Shown here: in pieces, positions 38,778 through 41,134 of the stretch
Layout of the letters: the number at the start of each line of letters is the position of its first letter
Position numbering within the stretch: position 1 is the first letter of the stretch
DNA from: Sulfurovum sp.
Lineage (GTDB): Bacteria > Campylobacterota > Campylobacteria > Campylobacterales > Sulfurovaceae
Assembly (NCBI GenBank): GCA_020721775.1
Contig: DYLZ01000005.1
Span: forward strand, 1 to 41,134
Direction of reading: 5' to 3'
Length of the DNA stretch: 41,134 nucleotides
Made by a program: the position numbers and the translations under genes
Notes under the pieces: generated by a model
Databases searched by the model: none
Told to the model about the DNA's origin: nothing
Seen by the model: only the letters and a program-made list of their open reading frames with translations

Positions 38778-40064
38778 CTACCGATTATTTAAATACTCTC
38801 TAACAACTTCCCTGTCATCGAAATGGTGCTTTACGCCTTTTATCTCTTGATAATCCTCGTCGCCTTTACCCAGTATCAATAGCGCTTCTCCTGCGCCAAG
38901 CTCGTCTATTGCTCTTTGTATTGCCTCTTTTCTCTCAATGATCACATTAACATTATCTTTACCCTCAAGCCCTGCCATAATTTCGCTAATGATAGCTTCA
39001 GGCTCCTCATCCCTCGGATTATCGCTTGTTACATATATCTTATTTGCAAATCGGCCTACGACCGCACCCATGCGAGGACGCTTAAGCTTATCTCTGTTTC
39101 CGCCTGCTCCAAATACCACTGAAAGCTTTTTGTCTTTCATGCTTTGAAGCACTTGAAGGATCCCGTCATCAGTATGGGCGAAATCCACGATAACCAAAGG
39201 ATCGCGGCTTACTACTTCCATTCTTCCGGCAACTCCGCCAAAATCCTCGACCACATCACATATCTGCTGTAATGGTTTATTTGTCAAAAGCGCTACGGCT
39301 CCGATTGCTGCCATTAAATTGTAAAGATTAAATAATCCTACCATATGCGAGTGGAATGTTGCTTCTTTTTCTAAATATTTTATATAAGCCGTAATCCCAT
39401 TTTGGAGTGAAAATGCCTGAACTTTAAATGTTGCAGGATTATCAACCCCGTAACTATAAGCATTGATAGGATTATATGTCAAATGCGCAAGATCGTCTTT
39501 ATTTAGCAACTTCATAGATCCATCTGCAAAAAACAGACTTTTTACCCTTCTATACTCTTCTATCGTTTTATGATAGTCAAGATGATCTGCGGTAACATTT
39601 GTATGAATTTTCAATGCAAATTCTATGCCTTCTATTCTTTTTTGCTCGATTGCATGTGAGCTTACTTCCATGATAAAATATCTACAGCCCATATCATATG
39701 CCTGTTTCATATGATATATTGTTTCAAAGACAGATGGCGTTGTCATTGATCTCTCTTTCAGTCTCTCTTCGTTTGCAAAAAATCCTCTAGTTCCCTGCAG
39801 CGCGACTTTTTCTCCAAGATCAAGCAAAATGGAATAGATAGCTCCACTCACAGTCGTTTTGCCATTAGTTCCTGTTACGCCTACAACTTTAAGATCATTG
39901 AGATCCCATATCTCTATAAGTTTATCGGGTGTGATACTCTCACTCTCTATCCCAGTCATATATTTACTATTTTGATTTGTTTGCAAAAGAAGAGTCTCGT
40001 CATCTATCTCTTTTGTATTATCTGTTATATAGTTGTATTTGAGGTATGAGAACGGGATCTTCAC
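38778..40064 (-). CDS. murE: UDP-N-acetylmuramoyl-L-alanyl-D-glutamate--2,6-diaminopimelate ligase (start revised)
   Basis: VVGVTGTNGKTTVSGAIYSIL, TTPSVFETIYHM, NVTADHLDYHKTIEEY, DNPRDEEPEAI (DAP-type DNPR). The ORF-track start at 40097 is TTG; the GTG at 40064 has AAGGA 5-6 nt upstream. Confidence 0.93.
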   Translation of the reverse strand: MKIPFSYLKYNYITDNTKEIDDETLLLQTNQNSKYMTGIESESITPDKLIEIWDLNDLKVVGVTGTNGKTTVSGAIYSILLDLGEKVALQGTRGFFANEERLKERSMTTPSVFETIYHMKQAYDMGCRYFIMEVSSHAIEQKRIEGIEFALKIHTNVTADHLDYHKTIEEYRRVKSLFFADGSMKLLNKDDLAHLTYNPINAYSYGVDNPATFKVQAFSLQNGITAYIKYLEKEATFHSHMVGLFNLYNLMAAIGAVALLTNKPLQQICDVVEDFGGVAGRMEVVSRDPLVIVDFAHTDDGILQVLQSMKDKKLSVVFGAGGNRDKLKRPRMGAVVGRFANKIYVTSDNPRDEEPEAIISEIMAGLEGKDNVNVIIERKEAIQRAIDELGAGEALLILGKGDEDYQEIKGVKHHFDDREVVREYLNNR

Positions 40065-40089
40065 TTTTATCCTTCGTATAATATATTTA

Positions 40090-40116
40090 TCAATCAAAGT
40101 TTAAAATATTGATTGA
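40090..40116. repeat. 8-bp perfect inverted repeat TCAATCAA-N11-TTGATTGA between murE and the IS110 element
   Basis: TCAATCAA 40090-40097; TTGATTGA 40109-40116. Confidence 0.7.
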
Positions 40117-40123
40117 GGTTCTA

Positions 40124-40290
40124 TAAAACTCATAGCTCTCACAAAAGCTAATAATAAACAAGTTTTTTCCTTTTAGGATGAAGATACCTACATATAAAAC
40201 GTCTTGTGTTAGCTTTATTAAATCATCTATAGGATGCTAAGGAGAGATTAAAAACTTCTACCTTTTATATAACGAAGCTATGAGATTTTA
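40124..40290 (+). ncRNA. Candidate IS110 bridge RNA region (structured 5' non-coding segment)
   Basis: TAAAACTCATAGCT (40124-40137) pairs with AGCTATGAG(A)TTTTA (40276-40290), 14 bp with a single-nt bulge. Nested AAAGCTAA (40144-40151)/TTAGCTTT (40209-40216), asymmetric 6x1 internal loop, then ACAAG (40158-40162)/CTTGT (40203-40207). Sits directly upstream of the IS110 transposase. Confidence 0.45.
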
Positions 40291-40316: not shown

Positions 40317-41134
40317 ATGTATTATGTTGGAGTTGACATTGCTAAAGATAAACACTTCGTTTGTATTTTAGATACCTTAGGTGAAATTGCCTGTAAACCA
40401 TTCTGGATTTATAGTGATATTTCGGGTCTTAGAAAACTTCTTAAGCAATTAGCTGAACTCTCTTCGGATAGTAATGATTTTATCATTGGCATAGAATCAA
40501 CCGGGGCATTTAGCGAGAACTTTTATAGTTATATGAGTGATGAGAATTACAAAGTAGTTTTACTCAATTCATACCAAACTGCAAAGTATAGAGACTTCTC
40601 TACCATTAAAAAGATTAAGAATGATTCTATTGATGCTTATGTTATAGCCGAGCTTTTAGCTACCGGCAAATATAGATCAAGCTACATCAGTAATGAAGAT
40701 TATCACAATTTAAAAGTTTTAAACAGGCTCAAAAAATCATTGGATGATAAGATAAAAACGGTTAAAAGAGAGATATCAACTGTTATGGCTACAGTAAATC
40801 CTGAGATTGCCACTGTTTTTCCAAATATCTTTACAAAAACGGCATTGGCGATCATTAAAGCCTATCCAACAGCATTGGATATTCAAAAAGCTACGCCTAA
40901 AAAGCTAACCAAGCTGTTTCGCCATATTAAAGGTAATAACTTTGGCGATGAAAAGGCTAAGCGGTTAATCGAACTTGCCAAATCTTCCATCTATACAGGT
41001 CGAGCTTATGAATCAAGAGCTTTAATGATCAAGACTAATATTAGTATATTAGAGCTTTTATGTCAAGAAAAAGATGAAGTTGAAAAACAAATTAATGATT
41101 TAATCAACTCTAAACTTGATGATGATGCCTCCAA
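40317..41134 (+). CDS. IS110-family transposase (partial, C-terminus beyond window end)
   Basis: Not in ORF track (open at edge). MYYVGVDIAKDKHFVCILDTLGE..., IGIESTGAFSENFYSYM, KKIKNDSIDAYVIAELLATGKY (DEDD RuvC-like domain pattern); SD GGAGG at 40306-40312 region. Confidence 0.9.
   Translation, partial: MYYVGVDIAKDKHFVCILDTLGEIACKPFWIYSDISGLRKLLKQLAELSSDSNDFIIGIESTGAFSENFYSYMSDENYKVVLLNSYQTAKYRDFSTIKKIKNDSIDAYVIAELLATGKYRSSYISNEDYHNLKVLNRLKKSLDDKIKTVKREISTVMATVNPEIATVFPNIFTKTALAIIKAYPTALDIQKATPKKLTKLFRHIKGNNFGDEKAKRLIELAKSSIYTGRAYESRALMIKTNISILELLCQEKDEVEKQINDLINSKLDDDAS

What the first reader, a model, noticed from the sequence alone, without database searches (positions are those of the whole stretch)
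40124..40290. Long-range base-paired ~167-nt segment upstream of an IS110 transposase: bridge-RNA candidate
Seen: a 14-bp helix (5 + 9 bp with one bulged A) joins 40124-40137 to 40276-40290, enclosing a second helix (8 bp, 6x1 internal loop, 5 bp) at 40144-40162/40203-40216. A smaller hairpin CATC-TATAG-GATG (40224-40236) and an alternative hairpin at 40239-40264 are also present. Such a nested helix/internal-loop layout is unlikely by chance in about 250 nt. Established: IS110-family elements encode a non-coding bridge RNA (177 nt in IS621) next to the transposase, with internal loops pairing to target and donor DNA. Inference: this region is the bridge RNA of an uncharacterised Campylobacterota IS110 lineage. 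The long closing helix is not how I recall the IS621 bridge RNA being drawn, so it may be a structural variant.
Basis: partly seen in the sequence, partly recalled or inferred. Interest (0 to 1): 0.75.

Follow-up and report, generated by a model that had tools for sequence, protein, structure and literature searches.

The report
Bridge RNA targeting ribosome-binding sites
The segment is the guide ("bridge") RNA gene of a mobile DNA element of the IS110 family, and its target-reading loop is complementary to the ribosome-binding sequence in front of bacterial genes, which fits the finding that copies sit just before start codons, here that of the cell-wall gene murE.

Summary
The structure is real and is the bridge RNA of an IS110 element. 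All named helices are at the stated coordinates. In 17 relatives the fold is 93.8% paired, against under 47% for slid controls, with 11 compensated pairs. Element ends were mapped from relatives and from 12 identical copies in one complete genome. The left core is 40073-40074, outside the segment; the right end is on another contig of the same genome. Loop sequences match donor ends and targets and change with them across subclades.

Added here: (1) the target guide carries an anti-Shine-Dalgarno motif (TCCTT); in 26 of 29 insertions a start codon lies 10-12 nt from the core. Firmicutes relatives do the same, and IS900 has a published motif of this kind. (2) The closing helix puts the donor guides in a multi-branch loop, as reported for IS1111, not IS621. 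Within the window clade its covariation is moderate. (3) The RNA's first 46 nt form an inverted repeat with the transposase's 3' non-coding region, function unknown. No transcript was tested.

The parts
40062..40072 (-). Target flank: murE start codon GTG (40062-40064) and the GGA part of its Shine-Dalgarno sequence, left intact by the insertion
   Evidence: GTG at offset 10, 428-aa ORF; murE by NCBIfam TIGR01085, 1.5e-117
40073..40074 (.). Left copy of the core dinucleotide TT
   Evidence: comparison of relatives' ends; right copy on contig C8
40075..40082 (+). Left terminus CGTATAAT: right donor half-site and -10-like box TATAAT (40077-40082)
   Evidence: TATAAT at the same place in 24 of 25 left ends; promoter role inferred
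40090..40116 (+). 5' stem-loop TCAATCA/TGATTGA
   Evidence: CAATCA/TGATTG versus CAACCA/TGGTTG: one pair with two-sided change in 5 sequences
40118..40163 (+). Segment X, whose imperfect inverted copy X* lies after the transposase stop in relatives (outside the window)
40124..40137 (+). Closing helix, 5' strand
40144..40216 (+). Target-binding hairpin: outer stem 40144-40151/40209-40216, inner stem 40158-40162/40203-40207
   Evidence: outer-stem swap test p<0.001 in the window clade
40163..40172 (+). Left target guide TTTTTTCC and core TT: anti-Shine-Dalgarno
   Evidence: matches 7 of the 8 bases left of the core in its own target
40174..40190 (+). Stem-loop inside the target loop (TAGG/CCTA; TTGG/CCAA in relatives)
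40192..40201 (+). Right target guide ATATAA, core complement AA (40198-40199), handshake-like CG
   Evidence: only the position next to the core is strongly matched (19 of 20)
40226..40236 (+). Left donor guide TCTATAGGATG, matches right end TTTATAGGATG
40239..40264 (+). Donor stem-loop AAGGAGA/TCT-A-CCTT
   Evidence: 7 of 8 pairs with two-sided changes
40272..40277 (+). Right donor guide ACG, core complement AA, then G
   Evidence: ACGAA with TT|CGT, ACGAG with CT|CGT, TTAGGAG with CT|CCTA
40276..40290 (+). Closing helix, 3' strand
40317..41132 (+). IS110 transposase, first 272 codons; the contig ends inside the gene
   Evidence: PF01548 9.2e-30; full-length relative L053 also has PF02371 and matches IS621 and ISCro4

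Best explanation
40073-40290 is the left end of an IS110-type insertion sequence and encodes its bridge RNA, probably about 200 nt (about 40089-40290). The RNA has a 5' stem-loop, then a closing helix that holds a target-binding hairpin, the two donor guides and a donor stem-loop in one multi-branch loop. By analogy with IS621, the recombinase binds this RNA; the donor guides pair with the joined right and left ends of the excised element, the target guides pair with the target, and strands are exchanged at the core TT. The left target guide is an anti-Shine-Dalgarno sequence (TTTTTTCC|TT), so the element enters ribosome-binding sites, left end towards the gene, at a fixed distance from the start codon. 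Because the core stands on both sides, the Shine-Dalgarno sequence and start codon stay intact, here those of murE. Shown by sequence: fold, ends, insertion sites, guide-donor and guide-target agreement. Inferred: transcription, RNA ends, binding, catalysis, and continued murE expression.
For: Covariation. Ends from relatives and 12 identical copies, right junction of the window copy, uninterrupted site in the nearest relative. Donor guides differ with donor ends among four subclades. Start codon 10-12 nt from the core in 26 of 29 insertions; 18 of 22 open an ORF of 60 or more codons, against 1.9% of random sites and 16% of TCCTT sites in the window. Guides follow differing Shine-Dalgarno targets in Firmicutes relatives. 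Recombinase related to IS621 and ISCro4.
Against: No RNA data. The closing helix alone has only moderate covariation in the window clade (covariation score 2/500 shuffles, but pairs with two-sided changes 220/500), and a local alternative exists. The right target guide matches weakly beyond the first base. Targets are AT-rich, so guide matches alone carry limited weight. Three of 29 insertions do not fit the start-codon rule.
Confidence: 0.88

Rival explanations
1. The structured region is only a regulatory leader of the transposase mRNA (attenuator or translation control), not a guide RNA.
For: It directly precedes the transposase; its last helix ends about 17 nt before the ribosome-binding site.
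Against: Unpaired loops are more conserved than some helices and match donor ends that differ among subclades, and target guides follow targets; a leader would not need this.
Confidence: 0.04
2. It is a bridge RNA, but the functional donor module is a local IS621-like stem (1b:1', with 2:2'), and the long closing helix is a minor or transient form.
For: The short strand before the donor guide varies with the same partner across subclades (TCAT/ATGA, CTCAC/GTGAG, CTTAC/GTAAG; read), and 2:2' passes a swap test in subclade B (p=0.007).
Against: Partition functions give the long helix in all 28 RNAs (4.6-8.0 expected pairs) and almost none of the local form; the helix extension has its own compensations, e.g. 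AAAA/TTTT to AACG/CGTT.
Confidence: 0.2
3. Start-codon proximity reflects survival only: insertions elsewhere are lost because they break genes, and the guide has no preference for Shine-Dalgarno sequences.
For: Gene-dense genomes do purge harmful insertions.
Against: It does not explain the fixed 10-12 nt spacing, the excess over TCCTT sites, the single orientation, or guides that follow differing Shine-Dalgarno variants such as TCACCAC|CT.
Confidence: 0.04

Closest known systems
IS621 and its 177-nt bridge RNA (IS110 group; PMC11208160, PMC11208158)
   Same: RNA upstream of the recombinase; 5' stem-loop; target and donor guides on both sides of inner stem-loops; core in both guides; handshake-like base next to the core; related recombinase.
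   Different: Core TT instead of CT in the window clade; donor guides in a multi-branch loop closed by a long helix; targets are Shine-Dalgarno sequences; long right end; recombinase about 405 aa against 328.
IS1111-group bridge RNAs (PMC11208160) and seekRNAs (PMC11187229)
   Same: Donor guides in a multi-branch loop are reported for many IS1111 members.
   Different: Their RNA lies downstream of the transposase and they have 7-17 bp subterminal inverted repeats; here the RNA is upstream.
IS900 (IS110 family, Mycobacterium avium subsp. paratuberculosis; PMC8141618)
   Same: Published target motif CATGNNNNNNTCTCCTT, i.e. Shine-Dalgarno plus start codon in reverse complement; a cited title says it targets translation initiation signals.
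   Different: Different host phylum; its guide RNA was not examined here or in that paper.
ISBth13 and other Firmicutes IS110 elements (L095-L102)
   Same: Same insertion layout before annotated start codons; anti-Shine-Dalgarno guide that follows the target.
   Different: 28-33% identical recombinase; no long inverted repeat with the 3' region; the window-clade RNA model does not find them.

Membership tests
IS110 family element | DEDD (RuvC-like) transposase domain | tested here: met
   PF01548 9.2e-30 in the window
IS110 family element | C-terminal Transposase_20 domain with catalytic serine | tested here: inconclusive
   cut off in the window; PF02371 and alignment with ISCro4 over a conserved SG in close relative L053
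IS110 family element | Insertion without target duplication beyond the core dinucleotide | tested here: met
   12 copies share only CT; window copy TT on both sides
IS110-group bridge RNA | Structured RNA in the left end, upstream of the transposase | tested here: met
IS110-group bridge RNA | Guides complementary to both donor ends, varying with them | tested here: met
   (by-eye comparison of four subclades)
IS110-group bridge RNA | Guides complementary to target flanks, varying with them | tested here: met
   left guide strong, right guide weak
IS110-group bridge RNA | Expressed RNA that binds the recombinase | not testable with these tools
   no RNA or binding data
IS621-type bridge RNA layout | Target and donor modules as two separate stem-loops | tested here: inconclusive
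   multi-branch fold predicted in 28 of 28 RNAs; a local alternative is not excluded
IS1111 group | Bridge RNA downstream of the transposase | tested here: not met
   RNA is upstream
Rfam families | Match above gathering score | tested here: not met
   none in the window

The most novel reading that the evidence does not exclude
In this Campylobacterota lineage the bridge RNA is a switch. Its first segment X (40118-40163: closing-helix strand plus target-stem strand) can pair either within the bridge RNA or with X*, an antisense arm in the transposase's 3' non-coding region. When X is taken, the freed strands can pair otherwise (1b:1', 2:2') into a donor-only form, so the transposase mRNA would control whether the RNA reads targets, donors or nothing.
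Probability: 0.2. Interest if true: 0.8.

Novelty: new variant of a known kind. Interest (0 to 1): 0.62.

Why it matters
It offers a guide-RNA explanation for an old observation, that some IS110 elements such as IS900 insert at translation start signals: the target guide carries a copy of the anti-Shine-Dalgarno sequence. Such an element can enter the leader of almost any gene without breaking the gene, unlike IS110 elements with narrow targets. It also adds a bridge-RNA layout (multi-branch donor loop in an upstream RNA, core TT), and one complete genome with 12 natural copies gives a ready test set. The inverted repeat with the 3' region is a testable lead on how bridge RNAs are regulated.

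Tried and rejected
Rfam gave no match. Energy with flanks was not significant. The viral-contig search gave no answer twice, so viruses were checked only through phage records, which hold no similar DNA. A direct (not inverted) copy of the RNA in the 3' non-coding region was looked for and not found. I first took the donor stem of the G173 group as IS621-like (CTTTAGTTG/CAACTAAAG); consensus fold and partition function favour the closing helix there too. Swap tests for the closing helix within subclades B and C are uninformative because the strands hardly vary. I thought the CAT in the G173-group guide matched the start codon; it is one base out of register, so I draw nothing from it.

Full report
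Observation. The 167-nt segment folds 3.5 standard deviations below shuffled sequence, but with flanks only 1.4, so energy alone would not settle it.

Covariation. The gene starting at 40317 matches Pfam PF01548; the contig ends inside it. Relatives were collected from genomes and plasmids. Seventeen left ends align. The proposed fold has 93.8% of cells paired against 36-46% for slid partners; 11 pairs carry changes on both sides (shuffles 6.0 +/- 1.5), and RNAalifold predicts the same fold unprompted. With the covariance model R1, 26 sequences including a more distant subclade give 96.9% paired cells and 23 of 46 pairs with two-sided changes, 5 of them in the closing helix and 7 of 8 in the donor stem-loop. 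That alignment was fitted to the model and leans towards it; the first was not. Taken alone within the window clade the closing helix is only moderately supported: covariation score reached by 2 of 500 shuffles, but number of two-sided pairs by 220 of 500; 90% of cells paired against at most 50% when slid. R1 finds 15 of 400 related genomes; two of these hits (L110, L112) are relics.

Element ends. Close relatives share CCTTCGTATAAT on the left and TTCTTTATAGGATGGTT on the right. A complete genome (G173) with 12 identical copies of a 41% relative gives exact ends: CT|CGTATAAT and TTATAAAAAGG|CT. The shared core is TT in the window clade and CT in the others. For the window copy the left core is 40073-40074. 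Its right junction is on contig C8 of the same genome: TATAGGATGG|TT, then the end of the gene that precedes murE in relatives. The nearest relative has the two genes joined, with the Shine-Dalgarno sequence between them. murE is confirmed by NCBIfam.

Donor guides. In the window clade TCTATAGGATG (40226-40236) matches the right end TTTATAGGATGG, and ACGAA (40272-40276) is the complement of TT|CGT. In other subclades the ends differ and the guides differ with them: AAACG and AAAAG on the left; ACGAG with core CT; TTAGGAG with CT|CCTA (compared by eye). The two bases after the core complement of the target loop also follow the donor end in subclades B, C and D (CC with GG|CT, CA with TG|CT), like the handshake guides of IS621; in the window clade only the first of the two matches.

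Target guide. The left target guide ends in TCC|TT (window clade) or TC|CT|T (others), so the core is shifted by one base on the same motif. On the gene-sense strand the insertion sites read AAGG-N-ATG. In 26 of 29 insertions an ATG or GTG begins 10-12 nt from the core, and in 18 of 22 with enough flank it opens an ORF of at least 60 codons. In the window, random sites do so in 1.9%, CCTT sites in 7.7% and TCCTT sites in 16%. Three of four further left ends found with the RNA model fit too (L103, L106, L107; not L113). The guide matches 5.8 of 9 left-target bases on average against 3.05 along the flanks; on the right only the first base after the core is strongly matched (19 of 20).

Generality. 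Firmicutes IS110 elements on plasmids, 28-33% identical, have the same layout, with annotated gene starts 289-321 nt from the transposase start in seven of eight, and most of their guides follow their targets (CACCTC|CT, TCACCAC|CT, TTTTCTC|CT, GTTCCCCC|CT for GTTCCCGC|CT). In one (L101) I found no clear guide. IS900 has the published motif CATGNNNNNNTCTCCTT (PMC8141618). I found no paper in the library that links such targets to a guide RNA; the library lacks most subscription journals, so this does not prove novelty.

Topology. IS621 has a 5' stem-loop and two separate stem-loops (PMC11208160). Here the partition function of 28 RNAs from four subclades contains the closing helix in all (4.6-8.0 expected pairs) and the target stem in most. 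The donor guides then lie in a multi-branch loop, which is described for many IS1111 members, whose RNA lies downstream of the transposase. A local alternative (1b:1' and 2:2') also varies in step, 2:2' significantly in subclade B, and cannot be excluded.

Inverted repeat. In 21 of 21 elements with both ends read, in all four subclades, the RNA's first segment X (40118-40163 in the window) has an imperfect inverted copy, 27-74 nt long, after the transposase stop. Local scores are 36-60 against shuffle means of 17-25, each above the best of 100 shuffles, and own pairs score better than swapped pairs in the window clade (46.4 against 36.2, p=0.0002). Firmicutes relatives lack it. The 3' region of the transposase mRNA would thus be antisense to the RNA's first half. 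Function is unknown; a regulatory switch is my guess. The window copy's own X* lies in the unassembled part.

What is inferred. There are no RNA data. The transcript start is inferred from TATAAT at the same place in 24 of 25 left ends. Binding, catalysis and the expression of murE are inferred from IS621 and from the intact Shine-Dalgarno sequence.

Noticed in passing
window 40118-40163; after the transposase stop in L007, L016, L053, L018, L022 and others: Long imperfect inverted repeat between the first part of the bridge RNA and the transposase's 3' non-coding region, conserved in all four Campylobacterota subclades with a recurring central mismatch.
   Followed up: partly
L003 (G000:C46) 86-168: About 80 bp of the window's transposase end (the last bases of the contig) recur near the end of another contig with different sequence on both sides; a relic or an assembly effect.
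   Followed up: no
L014, left flank: The left flank resembles the element's own 3' non-coding region, as if a copy had inserted into another copy.
   Followed up: no
L054, both ends: Aberrant left terminus, and CGTATA directly after the right end, like a donor junction left behind by end-to-end recombination.
   Followed up: no
L110 1501-1669; L112 1501-1634: Bridge-RNA relics without an intact transposase of this clade next to them.
   Followed up: no
L009 2545-3700: Relative with several in-frame stops in the transposase but intact ends and RNA fold; probably dead.
   Followed up: no
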